A stretch of DNA of 14,735 nt from Dehalococcoidia bacterium (GTDB taxonomy: Bacteria > Chloroflexota > Dehalococcoidia > E44-bin15). The DNA is taken from NCBI GenBank assembly GCA_030638665.1, contig DAOWEF010000052.1:1-14735 (forward strand), read 5' to 3'. How positions within the stretch are numbered: position 1 is the stretch's first letter; each line of letters begins with the position of its first letter. Below the pieces are notes generated by a model, which was given only the letters and a program-made list of their open reading frames with translations, ran no database searches and had not been told where the DNA came from. Shown here in pieces: positions 6,036 through 9,169 of this stretch. The translations under genes and the position numbers were made by a program.

Positions 6036-6512
6036 ATGGCAATCGAAGTAACGGTTAAAAAAACAGAGCCGATGACGGTGGCCTTCGTCTCAATGAAGGG
6101 GCCATACAGCCTGATAGGTGAGACCTTTGGCAAGCTCTACGGCCTGATCGGGGAGAAAGGCTATGTGCCCGCTGGCCCGCCGGTGGGGGTCTATTTCAAC
6201 GCCCCGGGACAGGTTCCCGACGAGGAACTGTTATGGGAACTGCGCAGCCCCATAGCCGGGGATGTGGCCCCAGGCGGCCCCGATGAGCGTGGCCTTGGCA
6301 TTAAAAAGGTGGAAGCTACCGAGGTGGCTGCCACGATGCATAAGGGGCCTTATGATCAGGCAGGGGCTACTTATAGCGCGCTTGCGGGATGGATCGCGGA
6401 GAACGGATACGAGATTGTGGGTCCTTCGGAGGAAGTCTACCTCAGCGACCCGGGGAAGACCGCGCCTGAGGAGCTGCTCACCGAGATCCGCTTCCCGGTG
6501 AAGAAGCGATAG
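6036..6512 (+). CDS. GyrI-like small-molecule binding domain protein
   Basis: The 158-residue cytosolic protein looks like a stand-alone GyrI-like (AraC effector-binding, SHS2-type) domain. An internal duplication is plain: KGPYSLIGETFGKLYGLIGE (from about 20) and KGPYDQAGATYSALAGWIAE (from about 98). Each is followed by a GY..GP...VY...P pattern and a closing strand ending ELRSP or EIRFPV. The glutamate in TEIRFPV corresponds to the ligand-contacting acid seen in this fold. No DNA-binding domain is attached, so it is probably a ligand-binding or hydrolase-type member, not a regulator in itself. The ATG has the ribosome site GAGGAGG six bases upstream. A hairpin with a T-run follows the stop, so the gene ends its transcript here. 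The natural ligand cannot be told from sequence. Confidence 0.82.
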   Translation: MAIEVTVKKTEPMTVAFVSMKGPYSLIGETFGKLYGLIGEKGYVPAGPPVGVYFNAPGQVPDEELLWELRSPIAGDVAPGGPDERGLGIKKVEATEVAATMHKGPYDQAGATYSALAGWIAENGYEIVGPSEEVYLSDPGKTAPEELLTEIRFPVKKR

Positions 6513-6519
6513 AGGGCTG

Positions 6520-6554
6520 GGGCTTCACGGAGTGAGCCACAAAGCCCGTTTTAT
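6520..6554 (+). terminator. Rho-independent terminator after the GyrI-like gene
   Basis: GGGCTT (6520-6525) can pair with AAGCCC (6542-6547), and TCAC/GTGA pair inside it. The run GTTTTAT follows directly. Bases about 6529-6548 also resemble the right part of the repeat copy at 7877-7998 (GAGTGAGCC followed by CCCGT), so this may be a captured end of the same repeat family. Confidence 0.5.
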
Positions 6555-6764
6555 ATTCCCTGAGCTCAGTCAAGGTCGAGCACCGCAAGGAAATGAGGTG
6601 TGGAGAAGTTGATGAACGTAGCCAGAAGAAATCATACATAGTACCTATGATAAACGTAGTAGCCGGACCGCCATGACTTCCATCCAGAGCAGCGGCACCA
6701 CCATTGAGACTCTTTGTAGCACCCCCTTCCATGGCTCGAAAACATTGAATCCGAACATAATTGA

Positions 6765-6860
6765 ATATAACAGCCATATGGACGAACTCTGGTTTCGCTT
6801 AATCTGATTTACAGCCCCAGCGCCTAGCTTTGCGAAGTGTGAAGCATTCAGTAAAGCGAA
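6765..6860. repeat. Intergenic palindromic repeat, copy A
   Basis: This copy lies downstream of the DUF4870 gene. It shares AACAGCCATAT, TTCGC..AATC, AGCCCC, a core GCTTTGCGAAGT (6827-6838) and GAAGCATTCAG, in that order and spacing, with the copy at 7877-7998. The core departs at two bases from the perfect palindrome GCTTCGCGAAGC seen in the other copies. Confidence 0.72.
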
Positions 6861-6889
6861 GGGAGGCAGACATCAAGTATCCGCCTCCC
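6861..6889 (-). terminator. Hairpin, probable terminator of the DUF4870 gene
   Basis: GGGAGGC (6861-6867) pairs perfectly with GCCTCCC (6883-6889), leaving a 15-base loop. On the minus strand it lies about 40 bases past the DUF4870 stop and is followed by TTCGCTTTACT, which is only moderately T-rich. Confidence 0.4.
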
Positions 6890-6929
6890 CCTCCATTATT
6901 GTAGTGACGCCGATGCCGAGTGGTTAAAC

Positions 6930-7289
6930 CTATCGCTTTGCCGAATATTTCTCGGCCAATTCACCGGCAACCGGCAGCTTGTAGCGCTCCCCCTGATAGG
7001 CCTTCACCATGAGTATGATCCACAGCACAAAGGCAGCGATTGATATGAGCGATGCGACTACCATAAATAGAATCCCAACGTAGGGAATCCAATAGAAGAC
7101 CCACATAATGATCATAGCCACGTGTAAGGCACCGAATACAATGATGGACTGCATGGCGTGGAAGCGGACAAACTCGTCATCCTTCTCTATCAGGAAAAAC
7201 ACCAACCCGGTTACCCACCCCAGCACATAACACAGCAGTCCGGCAATATTAGGCTCAATGCCTGTACCACTCTTCTTCTCTTCGCTCAT
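6930..7289 (-). CDS. DUF4870-type small membrane protein
   Basis: The 119-residue protein has three hydrophobic segments at about 14-34, 46-67 and 70-95, and a short charged C-terminal tail, so it is an integral membrane protein. The signature between segments one and two, EFVRFHAMQS (39-48), and the overall length match DUF4870 (Tic20-like) proteins, a widespread family without an established function. The ATG at 7289-7287 has AGGGGGTGA just upstream and a strong extended -10 promoter at 7314-7322, so it forms its own transcription unit. On the coding strand the stop codon TAG runs directly into GTTTAAC, which fits the RYYYAAC pattern of integron inverse core sites. The gene lies between repeat copies at 6765-6860 and 7325-7366. 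Confidence 0.85.
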   Translation of the reverse strand: MSEEKKSGTGIEPNIAGLLCYVLGWVTGLVFFLIEKDDEFVRFHAMQSIIVFGALHVAMIIMWVFYWIPYVGILFMVVASLISIAAFVLWIILMVKAYQGERYKLPVAGELAEKYSAKR

Positions 7290-7313
7290 TCTTCACCCCC
7301 TTTCGTAATCTCA

Positions 7314-7322
7314 ATTATACCA
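7314..7322 (-). promoter_or_regulatory. Extended -10 promoter of the DUF4870 gene
   Basis: On the minus strand the sequence reads TGGTATAAT, a perfect extended -10 element, about 25 bases before the ATG at 7289. No good -35 box is present, as is common for extended -10 promoters. It abuts repeat copy B, so the repeat and the promoter may have moved together. Confidence 0.65.
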
Positions 7323-7324
7323 CT

Positions 7325-7366
7325 TTTACAGCCCCTCTTCTTAGCTTCGCGAAGCGAAACGCAAAC
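7325..7366. repeat. Intergenic palindromic repeat, copy B (short)
   Basis: TTTACAGCCCC (7325-7335) and CTTAGCTTCGCGAAGCG match copy A in order and spacing. The core GCTTCGCGAAGC (7344-7355) is a perfect 12-base palindrome. The copy lacks the left AACAGCCATAT end and is shorter than copies A and C. Confidence 0.68.
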
Positions 7367-7368
7367 AC

Positions 7369-7387
7369 GCTGTTATGTGCCGTTGCA
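7369..7387. repeat. Left member of inverted repeats flanking the thioesterase gene
   Basis: This 19-base stretch (begins GCTGTTATG, ends GTTGCA) matches 15 of 19 bases of the reverse complement of 7868-7886, and all four differences are transitions. The two copies bracket the AT-richer thioesterase gene as a unit of about 518 bases. Confidence 0.5.
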
Positions 7388-7392
7388 AGTGT

Positions 7393-7414
7393 AAAAATCA
7401 TGGAGCATTGCTCC
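7393..7414 (-). terminator. Compact terminator overlapping the thioesterase 3' end
   Basis: On the minus strand GGAGC-AAT-GCTCC (7414-7402) forms a perfect five-pair hairpin, followed by ATGA and TTTTT. The hairpin lies inside the last codons of the thioesterase gene and the T-run directly follows its stop. Confidence 0.5.
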
Positions 7415-7838
7415 CAATTTCCCACATAGAAACACCCTCCACGGTAACATATGTTCCTGTTCCAATAGCGACAAGCTCTCCATCGGAAGCCGACACTCGC
7501 ATCTCAGCTACGGAAATGCGCTTACCAGACTTCACTACCCATCCCTCTGCATGAAGTTCGCTTTCTTTCACTGGATACAATAAATGAACCTTAAATTCGC
7601 TTGTAACAACCAAAACCTCCTCCTTTTTAGCTGCTACCGCAAACCAACCAGCATTGTCTAATAGGGTAGCCATTGCTCCCCCATGAATACCCTTCCCTGC
7701 GTGATCAAGATTTGGATTGTATGGGAGCTTAAGATGCGCATGTCCTTGCTCATCGTATGAAAGGGTCATACCAAAAAATCTTGCTATCGGCGCCCCACGA
7801 AATAGTTCAATCAACTCCTGCTGCCAAGCGGTATTCAT
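7398..7838 (-). CDS. PaaI-type hotdog-fold thioesterase
   Basis: The 146-residue cytosolic protein probably hydrolyses an acyl-CoA or aryl-CoA thioester. The hallmark of PaaI/YdiI-like hotdog enzymes is visible: NLDHAGKGIHGGAMATLLDNAG (43-64), with the HGG at 52-54 and the catalytic acid D61. N-terminal PIARFFGM (17-24) and the later strands FKVHLLYPV and GKRISVAEMRV complete the fold. The substrate cannot be predicted. The ATG at 7838-7836 has GAGG about nine bases upstream. Base composition is clearly AT-richer than in neighbouring genes (for example the Lys/Val/Thr stretch around 7560-7640), and imperfect inverted repeats lie on both sides, which suggests recent acquisition. A compact terminator overlaps its 3' end. 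Confidence 0.87.
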   Translation of the reverse strand: MNTAWQQELIELFRGAPIARFFGMTLSYDEQGHAHLKLPYNPNLDHAGKGIHGGAMATLLDNAGWFAVAAKKEEVLVVTSEFKVHLLYPVKESELHAEGWVVKSGKRISVAEMRVSASDGELVAIGTGTYVTVEGVSMWEIGSNAP

Positions 7839-7867
7839 TTCCCAACCTCTTTATCGTGCTTCTTCGA

Positions 7868-7886
7868 TGCAATGACGCACAACAGC
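7868..7886. repeat. Right member of inverted repeats flanking the thioesterase gene
   Basis: This 19-base stretch (TGCAATGACGCACAACAGC) is the inverted partner of 7369-7387, matching at 15 of 19 positions. Its AACAGC end is also the left end of repeat copy C. Read in the gene direction it contains GTTGTGC, one mismatch from an integron GTTRRRY core site. Confidence 0.5.
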
Positions 7887-7998
7887 CATATCTAGCAATA
7901 GCCCAGAATTCGCCCAATCCGCTTTGGAGCCCCCTGATCCCTCAGCTTCGCGAAGCGCGAAGCATTCAGGCAAACCGAGTGAGCCGTAAAACCCGTGT
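7877..7998. repeat. Intergenic palindromic repeat, copy C (longest)
   Basis: The copy begins at AACAGCCATAT, continues through AATTCGCCCAATCCGC, AGCCCCC and the perfect palindrome GCTTCGCGAAGC (7945-7956) to GAAGCATTCAGGC, then GAGTGAGCC and CCCGTG. The left half partly mirrors the right half (GCTTTGGAGCC against the complement of GGCTCAC...GGGTTT), so the whole element could fold as a long imperfect hairpin. It separates the RRM and thioesterase genes. Confidence 0.72.
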
Positions 7999-8002
7999 CA
8001 GC

Positions 8003-8026
8003 AGAAGTTCTATGAAGAAGTTCTAT
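8003..8026. repeat. Two tandem 11-base repeats, period 13
   Basis: AGAAGTTCTAT occurs at 8003-8013 and again at 8016-8026. It follows repeat copy C and lies between it and the RRM gene stop. The unit AGAAGTTCT is itself nearly palindromic. No function is apparent. Confidence 0.6.
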
Positions 8027-8053
8027 TATGAATCTGTTAAATCTGAGGGCTAT

Positions 8054-8329
8054 TTACCAGCGCCGCCCCCCACCCCGAGGGCCTTCGGTGCGAGGGCGAG
8101 CCTCATTAACGGTAAGCGTTCGTCCTTTCAACTCCTTGCCGTTCAGTTCCGCGATCGCGGCCTCGGCCTCAGCTTGGGTGGGCATCTCCACAAATCCGAA
8201 TCCTCTCGATACGCCGCTGTACCTGTCCGTTATGATTTTAGCGGATTCAACCTGCCCGAAGGCTTCAAAGGCCTGCTTCAACTCCTCTTCGGTGAGCTCG
8301 TGTGACAAATTGCCTACGTAGACGTTCAT
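8054..8329 (-). CDS. RRM-type RNA-binding protein
   Basis: The 91-residue protein is a single RNA recognition motif with a short Gly/Arg tail (GPRGGGRRW). RNP2 is VYVGNL (3-8) and RNP1 is RGFGFVEM (42-49), whose aromatic residues stack on RNA bases. Bacterial members of this family are small single-domain proteins, often linked to cold or stress responses in cyanobacteria and others, but the role here is not known. The ATG has GGGAGGTC upstream at good spacing. The leader is likely about 105 bases if the extended -10 at 8440-8448 is used. On the coding strand ATTTAAC begins 12 bases past the stop and GTTAGGC lies 50 bases before the start; both match integron-type core patterns. Confidence 0.93.
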   Translation of the reverse strand: MNVYVGNLSHELTEEELKQAFEAFGQVESAKIITDRYSGVSRGFGFVEMPTQAEAEAAIAELNGKELKGRTLTVNEARPRTEGPRGGGRRW

Positions 8330-8369
8330 TTTGACCTCCCTGTTATCCCCATTTCTTGAACACTTATGC

Positions 8370-8440
8370 CAGAATTTCGCCTAACCTCCAAATAGTCGAA
8401 CTCTTGGCTTCGCCTAATCCGCCCAGCACCCCCTGTGCCT
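8370..8440. repeat. Degenerate intergenic repeat, copy D
   Basis: CCAGAATTTCGCCTAACC (8369-8386) matches the left part of copy C, and GGCTTCGCCTAATCCGCCCAG (8406-8426) followed by CACCCCC matches the same segment again. The copy therefore looks like a double or rearranged left half, without the GCTTCGCGAAGC core. GCCTAAC at 8379-8385 is the complement of GTTAGGC, a perfect GTTRRRY. Confidence 0.5.
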
Positions 8441-8448
8441 TTATACCA
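8440..8448 (-). promoter_or_regulatory. Extended -10 promoter candidate for the RRM gene
   Basis: The minus strand reads TGGTATAAA, with a weak -35 (TTTACT) 18 bases upstream. It shares TGGTATAA with the promoter of the DUF4870 gene. A second candidate, TTGGAG-17-CATAAG, lies nearer the gene (-10 at about 8363-8368). Confidence 0.45.
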
Positions 8449-8488
8449 CATCCCATCTAATGAGTAAAGGCCAGGTAATGGCGCGGAG

Positions 8489-9040
8489 TTACAACCCCAA
8501 TTCCTCGGCGATGCCCTTCATCGCCGCAAGCCCCAACTCGATGAACTCCTCAAGCTCGAGGCCAAGCTCGCGGCACTTGGCGATCTGCTCCCGGTTTGCC
8601 CCGGCAGCAAATCTCTTCTCGCCGAAGCGCTTTATCAGCGACTTGGTGGTGAGCCCCTCAAGCTTCTTGTCCGGGCGCACCAGAACGCCGGCAACTATGA
8701 GCCCGGTGAGGGGGTCGGTACAGAAAAGGGCCTTACCAAGCAGAGTTTCAGGGGGGATGCCGTGAGCCTCATTGTGGCATAGGATGGCTTGCGCCATCTC
8801 CTCCGAGGCACCAAGCTCCCGAGCGATGTCTGCCCCCAGCTTGCTGTGAGCACGCATGTCCCCCTCGGTGAGCTCGACATCGATGTCATGCAGCAGCCCA
8901 GTAAGCCCCCACTCCTCCCCATCCTCGCCAAAGTGTCTCGCCAGCGCCCTCATGATCGCCTCGGTGGCCAGCATATGGTTGATGAGGTTCCGATTCTCTA
9001 TATTGGCCTCGATGGAGTCCAGGGCATCGTCTCTGGTCAT
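8489..9040 (-). CDS. HD-domain phosphohydrolase family protein
   Basis: The 183-residue soluble protein belongs to the HD superfamily of metal-dependent phosphohydrolases. Metal ligands in the expected order are H22 (INHMLATEAI), H51-D52 (GLLHDID) and D109 (FCTDPLTGL), with H65 and H89 as additional histidines. The pattern and length match small HDIG-type proteins whose substrates (nucleotides, cyclic dinucleotides or others) are unknown. No second domain is fused. The ATG at 9040-9038 is preceded by GGGGAG, and a further AAGGAGGAAGG lies slightly upstream. It shares strand with uvrA, which ends about 130 bases upstream of it, but a TATAAT in that gap suggests its own promoter. Confidence 0.88.
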   Translation of the reverse strand: MTRDDALDSIEANIENRNLINHMLATEAIMRALARHFGEDGEEWGLTGLLHDIDVELTEGDMRAHSKLGADIARELGASEEMAQAILCHNEAHGIPPETLLGKALFCTDPLTGLIVAGVLVRPDKKLEGLTTKSLIKRFGEKRFAAGANREQIAKCRELGLELEEFIELGLAAMKGIAEELGL

Positions 9041-9138
9041 TTCTTTCGCTCCCCACCTTCCTCCTTATGTTGTCGACGCTTAATTGGTTGCGCAAATGCT
9101 GCCATTGCTCATGGTGATGAAGCTTATTTCTGGGTGAG

Positions 9139-9144
9139 ATTATA
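9139..9144 (-). promoter_or_regulatory. Possible -10 box for the HD-domain gene
   Basis: A consensus TATAAT reads on the minus strand about 100 bases before the HD-domain start. The only -35 candidate at proper spacing, TGGCTA, is weak. Confidence 0.35.
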
Positions 9145-9169
9145 GCCTATCAACGAAAAGATAGCCAGT

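What the first reader, a model, noticed from the sequence alone, without database searches (positions are those of the whole stretch)
6765..8450. Cassette-like array: three unrelated leftward genes separated by related palindromic repeats with integron-like core motifs
DUF4870, thioesterase and RRM genes, all leftward, alternate with repeat copies A (6765-6860), B (7325-7366), C (7877-7998) and D (8370-8440). Read in the gene direction, RYYYAAC follows DUF4870 (GTTTAAC, directly after the stop) and RRM (ATTTAAC, 8041-8035). A near match follows the thioesterase (ACATAAC). A perfect GTTRRRY (GTTAGGC, 8385-8379) precedes RRM, and near matches are GTTGTGC (7883-7877) and GTTATAT (6771-6765). The spans from near-GTTRRRY to RYYYAAC at A and C are both 165 bases, and each contains a long imperfect palindrome. 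This is the arrangement of gene cassettes with attC sites, or a cluster of attC sites lacking an integrase. Against it: no integrase in the window, no core site upstream of DUF4870, the right halves of A and C are not alike, and two genes have their own promoters. A mobile palindromic repeat (MITE or REP type) is the simpler alternative.
Basis: partly seen in the sequence, partly recalled or inferred. Interest (0 to 1): 0.72.

Follow-up and report, generated by a model that had tools for sequence, protein, structure and literature searches.

The report
Cassette-like gene hotspot without integrase
In a group of uncultured Dehalococcoidia bacteria, unrelated single genes are found behind the same core genes in different genera and carry shared small DNA motifs before and after them, much like integron cassettes but without a recognised integron integrase or standard attC sites.

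Summary
The repeats are real. The window is a Dehalococcoidia contig, and the gap between the HD and GyrI genes is one of several hotspots. Two oriented modules recur: M2 (45 nt, just upstream of a cargo gene) and M1 (hairpin-like, after a cargo gene). D is M2, A and C are M1+M2, B is M1-like.

In 15 genomes of the order M2 occurs in 14 (E <= 0.5; 13 at E <= 0.001) and M1 in 11. M2 follows the same core genes in different genera, mostly with different cargo. RRM occurs at several sites; blastn homology between copies starts at, or 2 nt inside, the finding's GTTAGGC.

Canonical attC was not found: an attC scan gives 16 hits (8 places, in 3 of 6 loci; 0.4 expected) beside IntI genes of other families, 0 in the window, 0 in 15 M1/M2 loci. 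No IntI passes the cut-off in 14 family genomes. Within the genus the shared genes keep their order; some genes or copies are lost.

Best reading: an integron-like, integrase-less cassette hotspot, turned over mainly by homologous recombination. A site-specific step at GTTAGGC is suggested, not shown.

The parts
8489..9040 (-). HD-domain gene; its 3' end is the fixed left border of the site
   Evidence: Pfam HD; upstream of M2 in 6 genomes, 3 of them one genus, by protein clustering
8440..8445 (-). -10-like TATAAA of a possible promoter lying between HD and M2
   Evidence: read by eye; prediction only
8370..8427 (-). Repeat D = module M2, with GTTAGGC core at 8385-8379
   Evidence: nhmmer E 3e-15; R2 model E 8.7e-16; this copy was among those the models were built from
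8054..8329 (-). RRM gene (cargo 1)
   Evidence: Pfam RRM_1 9.5e-26; second copy in own genome at C26 (L174) and copies at other places in G003, G004, G014
7940..7988 (-). Repeat C, M1 (hairpin-like) part
   Evidence: nhmmer E 1e-11
7870..7927 (-). Repeat C, M2 part (degenerate here, better in G001 and G002)
   Evidence: nhmmer E 1e-3; G001 7e-13, G002 1e-9
7398..7838 (-). 4HBT thioesterase gene (cargo 2)
   Evidence: Pfam 4HBT 4.4e-13; a relative lies at an unrelated locus, L049
7325..7366 (-). Repeat B: M1-like hairpin plus a stretch like the HD gene 3' end and an extended -10 (GGCTGTAAAAGTGGTATAAT); absent from G002
6930..7289 (-). DUF4870 gene (cargo 3)
   Evidence: Pfam DUF4870 1e-11
6823..6867 (-). 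Repeat A, M1 part
   Evidence: nhmmer E 6e-10
6757..6812 (-). Repeat A, M2 part, holding GTTATAT at 6771-6765
   Evidence: nhmmer E 1e-13
6600..6764 (-). 3' remnant of a DUF998 gene (cargo 4); a full-length gene stands here in G002
   Evidence: Pfam DUF998 4.3e-34 on the G002 gene
6527..6549 (-). Left arm of a further M1 (ACGGGCTTTGTGG), between the DUF998 remnant and GyrI
   Evidence: 83% match to C; M1 hairpin at this place in G003, G009 and G010
6036..6512 (+). GyrI-like gene, fixed right border of the site
   Evidence: Pfam GyrI-like 5.1e-27

Best explanation
The window holds one occupied site of a multi-site hotspot for accessory genes in Dehalococcoidia. Behind the 3' end of a core gene lies a short DNA module, M2, often with a promoter-like box before it. 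A cargo gene follows on the same strand and is often closed by a hairpin-like module, M1; then comes the next core gene. Cargo units are gained, lost and stacked over genus-level time. The joining point on the 5' side is at the GTTAGGC of M2 (suggested by RRM junctions only). The most likely motor is homologous recombination of imported or circular DNA that carries the core-gene ends and the shared M1/M2 modules; this leaves partial copies of the flanking core genes between stacked cargos. SHOWN: modules, orientation, recurrence of sites, cargo differences, partial core-gene copies, RRM at several places. INFERRED: the motor, circular intermediates, and expression from the M2-proximal promoter.
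For: Recurrent upstream genes by protein clustering: HD in 6 genomes (3 of one genus), an LsrF-like aldolase in 4, a nadB-like gene in 3, an amidase-like gene in 2. By eye, M2 in the same gap: tldD-pmbA-like (G002, G007, weak in G010), leuC-leuD-like (G013, G004), behind recR-like (G004, weak in G008). Of 35 same-strand downstream proteins 29 are singletons; the only clusters are RRM (4 genomes) and 4HBT (2) (my gene caller missed a few cargos). Orientation: next gene after M2 same strand in 35 of 42, opposite in 5, contig end in 2; of the 5, two precede the DUF998 remnant and two precede same-strand ORFs that my caller missed. Gene before M1: same strand in 21 of 23, contig end in 2. RRM homology: window-G003:C5 starts at window 8385, window-own C26 at 8383, unlike sequence to the left. 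Partial core-gene copies: nadB 3' end in G004 and G003; by eye nadC 5' end in G008 and ADH 5' end in G013; HD 3' end in G010 and G007.
Against: Homologous recombination alone does not explain why one 45-nt motif stands at many unrelated sites and in other families of the class (14 of 119 genomes, 7 outside the order). Not every occupied hotspot has the modules: several nadB and recR gaps hold cargo with M2 faint or absent. The cold-shock gene, also found at different sites, does not share the GTTAGGC border. M2 conservation runs on past GTT to GAAAT, so it shows no sharp crossover edge. Only RRM defines the border. Rates of recombination in the core genes were not tested.
Confidence: 0.47

Rival explanations
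1. Integron-like site-specific system: M2 acts like attI, M1 plus the following GTYAGGC acts like a divergent attC, and an unidentified tyrosine recombinase acting in trans joins cassettes at G|TTAGGC.
For: M2 holds three alternating half-sites (TTAGGCGAA, TTCGTCTA inverted, TTAGGCGAA) with no RNA covariation, so it is more likely read as DNA. RRM border at GTTAGGC. M1 is followed within 45 nt by TYAGGCGRA (at most 1 mismatch), at +8/+9 from its end, in 4 of 17 copies without M2 behind them, 0.27 expected from shuffles. AAC stands just before the left arm in several full M1 copies. Promoter-like box, M2, gene order resembles Pc-attI (recalled).
Against: No IntI over cut-off in 14 family genomes, and no match at E <= 1e-50 in the order members of a 294-genome class sample; weaker Xer-like matches ring in every genome and every control. 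The best IntI-like protein, in G007 (224 bits, cut-off 265), has no match at profile positions 180-234 and no M1/M2 nearby. No canonical attC. 13 of 17 M1 copies lack the motif.
Confidence: 0.25
2. M2 and M1 are expression modules (operator or leader, and 3' hairpin) of ordinary accessory genes; sites turn over as plain recombination hotspots and the modules play no part in mobility.
For: M2 sits a median 38 nt before the next same-strand start codon and, in many copies by eye (not counted), about 20 nt after a -10-like box, also in distant families. It has a near-perfect dyad (TTAGGCGAAC-N5-GTTCGTCTAT), as operators do.
Against: Across genera M2 stays with the upstream core gene, not with a downstream gene family. 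LsrF-like sites have M2 directly behind the stop codon without a clear promoter. RRM copies at C26 and G003:C5 lack the left part of M2.
Confidence: 0.15
3. Degenerate integron: cassettes of an ancient chromosomal integron that lost its integrase (CALIN).
For: Real integrons occur in the class: 3 of 294 genomes carry IntI over the cut-off, with attC-like palindromes near some IntI genes. The attC scan is not very sensitive: it found sites in 3 of 6 IntI loci, so old divergent attC could escape.
Against: M1/M2 do not resemble anything in the six IntI loci (best m1 E 0.08, best m2 E 1.4). attC scan empty in 15 M1/M2 loci. The sites are dispersed over many core operons.
Confidence: 0.08
4. Mobile palindromic repeat (MITE or REP) that happens to lie between genes.
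For: Short, partly palindromic, repeated; copy B is absent from G002 in a clean gap; one M2 (L154) is followed by a DUF772 transposase-domain gene.
Against: Few copies (0-7 M2 matches per genome, a lower bound since first-look candidates were capped); strand follows the neighbouring genes; recurrence behind the same core genes.
Confidence: 0.05

Closest known systems
Integron with gene cassettes (attI, attC, IntI)
   Same: Single genes with a 3' palindromic site, stacked head to tail, behind a fixed site; GTTRRRY-type core at the 5' border of RRM; unrelated cargo
   Different: No IntI found, no canonical attC found, many dispersed sites instead of one platform, partial copies of core genes between cargos
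CALIN (cluster of attC lacking integrase), as described in PMC9668308 (passages read)
   Same: Array without integrase
   Different: The repeats do not score in an attC scan that finds attC-like palindromes in 3 of 6 IntI loci of the same class
[quoted passage not shown]
   Same: Conserved flanking core genes, changing cargo, no mobility genes at most sites
   Different: Here unrelated hotspots share two sequence modules, and cargo units are one to a few genes
MITE/REP repeats
   Same: Short palindromic repeats between genes
   Different: Low copy number, strand follows genes, tied to cargo genes

Membership tests
Integron | Integron integrase IntI (TIGR02249) in the genome | tested here: not met
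   0 of 14 family genomes over cut-off; own genome is 67% complete, but G001, G003, G005, G007, G010 are 93-99% complete; positive control: 3 of 294 class genomes over cut-off
Integron | attC sites: paired R''/R' (RYYYAAC/GTTRRRY) and L arms | tested here: not met
   own scan, score >= 10: IntI loci 16 hits = 8 places in 3 of 6 loci, 0.4 expected; 15 M1/M2 loci 0 hits, 1.0 expected; window 0, 0.4 expected. At score >= 8 the window has 2 hits (one place, both strands; 0.6 expected), pairing ACATAAC of copy B with a GTTATGT inside DUF4870. The scan penalises unequal spacers, so a divergent form could escape
Integron | attI next to intI | tested here: not met
   M2 lies behind other genes; no M2 in the six IntI-bearing loci (best E 1.4)
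Integron | Cassette joins at G|TTRRRY | tested here: inconclusive
   RRM homology starts at or 2 nt inside GTTAGGC in two places with unlike flanks; cold-shock gene does not
Integron | Turnover of gene-plus-repeat units between relatives | tested here: met
   between genera; within genus g1 only losses (copy B, DUF998 5' part) were seen
CALIN | At least two attC sites without integrase | tested here: not met
   with the sensitivity limit given above
Homologous-recombination hotspot | Same flanking core genes, different cargo, no mobility gene | tested here: met
   HD-GyrI and nadB-nadC sites; exception elsewhere: a DUF772 transposase-domain gene behind one M2, L154
Homologous-recombination hotspot | Raised recombination in flanking core genes | not tested
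   needs many strains of one species
MITE/REP | Many copies, orientation independent of genes | tested here: not met
   0-7 M2 matches per genome, lower bound; orientation tied to genes
MITE/REP | Target-site duplication at an empty site | not tested
   only the B gap in G002 was seen; no duplication test was made

The most novel reading that the evidence does not exclude
An integron-like gene-capture system that does not use IntI: M2 is a dispersed attI-like platform behind core genes, M1-GTYAGGC a divergent attC-like end, and a housekeeping or unknown recombinase moves single-gene cassettes among many chromosomal sites across Dehalococcoidia.
Probability: 0.25. Interest if true: 0.85.

Novelty: new variant of a known kind. 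Interest (0 to 1): 0.55.

Why it matters
[quoted passage not shown] Here the hotspots carry recognisable sequence modules, so sites can be found by model search, cargo listed (defence-like and toxin-antitoxin-like genes beside metabolic ones) and junctions mapped. If a recombinase is found, it would be a second route to integron-like gene capture, in a group whose genomes here come from metagenomes.

Tried and rejected
Rfam scan of the window: 0 families. Canonical attC: not found. IntI: none over cut-off in the family, none at E <= 1e-50 in the order. M2 as a conserved RNA hairpin: two candidate helices, paired cells 225 of 306 and 201 of 272, at shuffle level (296 and 471 of 1000 shuffles reach them; double changes below the shuffle mean), so rejected. 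M1 as an RNA structure: RNAalifold gave a weak fold for the A/C copies (-5.3 kcal/mol, 21 pairs, 6 with double changes) and no pair for the wider M1 set. M2 edge as crossover: conservation does not drop at GTT. DUF998 loss as cassette excision: the junction lies past GTTATAT inside the gene, so it looks like a simple deletion. Equal 165-nt spans: off by one and not conserved. LexA box idea: literature listing only, no test. PDB search with the HD protein: two weak matches, not used. Literature: four searches on integrons or cassettes in Chloroflexi/Dehalococcoidia or without integrase showed no title or abstract start on such cassettes; two of these lists were capped (12 of 190 and 10 of 430 papers shown), so absence from print is not established. 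One script gave a faulty result through its fuzzy pattern and was redone.
Full report
SETTING. The window is contig C22 of a 688-kb, 67% complete assembly. Relatives fetched by name are Dehalococcoidia or Dehalococcoidales MAGs. The order sample holds 15 genomes, 14 of them in the window's family.

OBSERVATION. The three genes and four repeats are there. In the gene direction, A and C are two modules in a row. M1 is a hairpin-like stretch around CCAAATGCTTCGCACTTSGCAAAGC; complete copies begin AACACGGGCTTTGCGG. M2 is about 45 nt: GGATTAGGCGAACCCAGAGTTCGTCTATATGGCTGTTAGGCGAAATT. D is M2 alone. B is an M1-like hairpin followed by a stretch like the HD gene 3' end with an extended -10. A further M1 left arm lies beside GyrI.

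SAME GENUS. G001 and G002 keep HD-RRM-4HBT-DUF4870 with A, C and D in place. B is missing from G002 in a clean gap. G002 has a full-length DUF998 gene before its contig end; the window and G001 keep only its 3' end. An AhpD-like gene between UvrA and HD in G001 and G002 is not in the window. So within the genus I saw losses but no new or moved cassette, which is against a busy system.

OTHER GENERA, SAME SITE. Between HD (or UvrA) and GyrI: G003 has DUF4870-4HBT with M1 after each; G006 has 4HBT behind an AhpD-like gene, with no match to HD, RRM or DUF4870 in the 8 kb seen; G009 the RRM 3' end and M1 at its contig end; G010 a HEAT-repeat-like and another gene; G005 a cold-shock gene and an RnlA-like gene; G007 an AAA gene (HD lies on another contig, also followed by M2); G004 a transglutaminase-like gene and a methyltransferase; G008 a cold-shock gene, ABC-transporter-like genes and a 139-aa protein. 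Names such as AhpD, HEAT, ABC, nadB, nadC, recR, leuC, tldD, pmbA, LsrF, amidase, ADH, HicA/HicB and ParE are my reading of the sequences, not tool results, except where a Pfam call is cited.

MODULES GENOME-WIDE. Models of the modules, built from copies in these genomes, were searched in the order: M2 in 14 of 15 genomes at E <= 0.5 and 13 of 15 at E <= 0.001, M1 in 11 of 15 at E <= 0.01. First-look candidates were capped at 150 in many genomes, so copy numbers are lower bounds. In a class sample, with stricter filters, M2 is in 14 of 119 genomes at E <= 0.001, seven of them outside the order. For the counts I used 42 M2 and 23 M1 places (nhmmer E <= 0.002 in the fetched loci; one second, antisense call on the same M2 was dropped). 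They include orthologous copies of G000, G001 and G002, so they are not all independent. The gene before M2 is on the same strand in 36 of 42, opposite in 6; the gene after it same in 35, opposite in 5, contig end in 2. Of the 5, two stand before the DUF998 remnant and two before same-strand ORFs that my gene caller missed; one (L088) is opposite. The gene before M1 is on the same strand in 21 of 23, with 2 contig ends; the gene after it same in 18, opposite in 5, all five being GyrI. Co-directional operons raise these figures, so they are not a clean test against random orientation.

RECURRENT SITES. Of 36 same-strand genes upstream of M2, 21 fall in six clusters of more than one genome and 15 are singletons. 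Two of the six clusters are cargo of the home array in the genus. The other four are HD (6 genomes, 3 of them one genus), LsrF-like (4), nadB-like (3) and amidase-like (2). Of 35 downstream genes, 29 are singletons; a few are wrong because my caller missed the true cargo. Thus M2 follows the upstream gene, not the cargo. At nadB-nadC nearly every genus seen has other cargo; M2 scores in G001, G005 (partial) and G008, is weak in G010, and by eye faint or absent in G000, G003, G004, G006, G011 and G013. At recR, M2 is present in G004 and weak in G008 and G003, while in G005, G006, G007 and G010 I see none directly behind the gene.

BORDERS. The RRM gene recurs at other places: own genome C26 between a GNAT-like and an SMR-like gene (L174), G004 in the leuC-leuD gap (L162), G003:C5 (L163), G014 (L032). 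By blastn the window-G003 match runs from window 8385 to 8023 and the window-C26 match from 8383 to 8036. The G004-C26 match likewise starts at TAGGCGAAATT. The alignment shows unlike sequence left of GTTAGGC in C26 and G003. BLAST edges are approximate and two junctions are few. G004 keeps M2 on the left. The cold-shock gene does not show this border. Four of 17 M1 copies without M2 behind them have TYAGGCGRA (at most 1 mismatch) at +8/+9 (0.27 expected); 13 do not.

PARTIAL CORE-GENE COPIES. Between stacked cargos lie pieces of the flanking core genes: a nadB 3' piece in G004 (37 aa, 92% to the G008 query) and a decayed one in G003 (62%); by eye a nadC 5' piece in G008 and an ADH 5' piece in G013; HD 3' ends before several cargos in G007 and G010. 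This is what single cross-overs with DNA carrying such ends would leave, and it is the main reason to prefer homologous recombination.

INTEGRON TEST. IntI: none over cut-off in 14 family genomes. In 294 class genomes, 3 pass, all in other families. Around these and three partial IntI genes my attC scan gives 16 hits at score >= 10 against 0.4 in Markov controls; these are 8 places, each counted on both strands, in 3 of the 6 loci (L230, L232, L233), and none in L228, L229 and L231. Examples are 61-nt sites with GCCTAAC/GTTAGGC ends. The window gives 0 (0.4 expected) and 15 M1/M2 loci 0 (1.0 expected). At score >= 8 the window has one place on both strands (0.6 expected) and the 15 loci 8 hits (6.0 expected). 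The scan penalises unequal spacers; M1 has short left and 8-9 nt right spacers, so a divergent relative could be missed. Hence 'not canonical attC', not 'unrelated to attC'.

WHAT M2 IS. It is not an RNA hairpin by covariation. It has a dyad plus a third half-site and, by eye, often lies about 20 nt past a -10-like box (distant families). That suits a recombination site, an operator, or both; I cannot separate them here.

CARGO. Among the proteins scanned: RRM, cold-shock, RnlA-like, AAA/AbiEii-type (PADLOC HEC-01A and LmuB matches), BglII-like endonuclease, methyltransferases, MBL-fold, papain-like protease, CbiX, nitronate monooxygenase, nitroreductase, and several without a family. Among those scanned there is no recombinase and one DUF772 transposase-domain protein (L154). 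Not all cargo was scanned.

PAPERS. PMC9668308 and PMC5635113: passages read. PMC9668308 notes that integrons have been detected in Chloroflexota. Others: search listings only.

VERDICT. Real, more interesting than a MITE, not an integron by the tests run. The most likely frame is an integrase-less hotspot with shared flanking modules.

Noticed in passing
L030 1795-1915 and 5234-5291; L159 2912-3035; L191 1-96: A second repeat family (58-121 nt matches, 83-97% alike) sits at the same kinds of hotspots in G003 and G006.
   Followed up: no
window 6600-6764: Remnant of a DUF998 gene, 5' part lost just past repeat A; full length in G002.
   Followed up: partly
window 9041-9169: An AhpD-like gene stands between UvrA and HD in G001 and G002 but not in the window.
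   Followed up: no
L028 near 1965-2010 (C copy of G002): G002 carries about 45 extra bases inside repeat C that repeat part of its own left arm (GGGCTTTGCGGC), like a small tandem duplication.
   Followed up: no
L216 4839-5929 (G097): In another family M2 lies between a trpC-like and a trpF-like gene with a HicB-like cargo, so operon interruption extends beyond the order.
   Followed up: no
L228-L233: Integron integrases occur in other Dehalococcoidia families (3 of 294 genomes over cut-off), with attC-like palindromes in 3 of the 6 loci looked at.
   Followed up: partly
L092 7873-8673 and 5831-6313: G007 has an IntI/XerA-like tyrosine recombinase (224 bits to TIGR02249, cut-off 265) and what looks like a shortened copy nearby.
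   Followed up: partly
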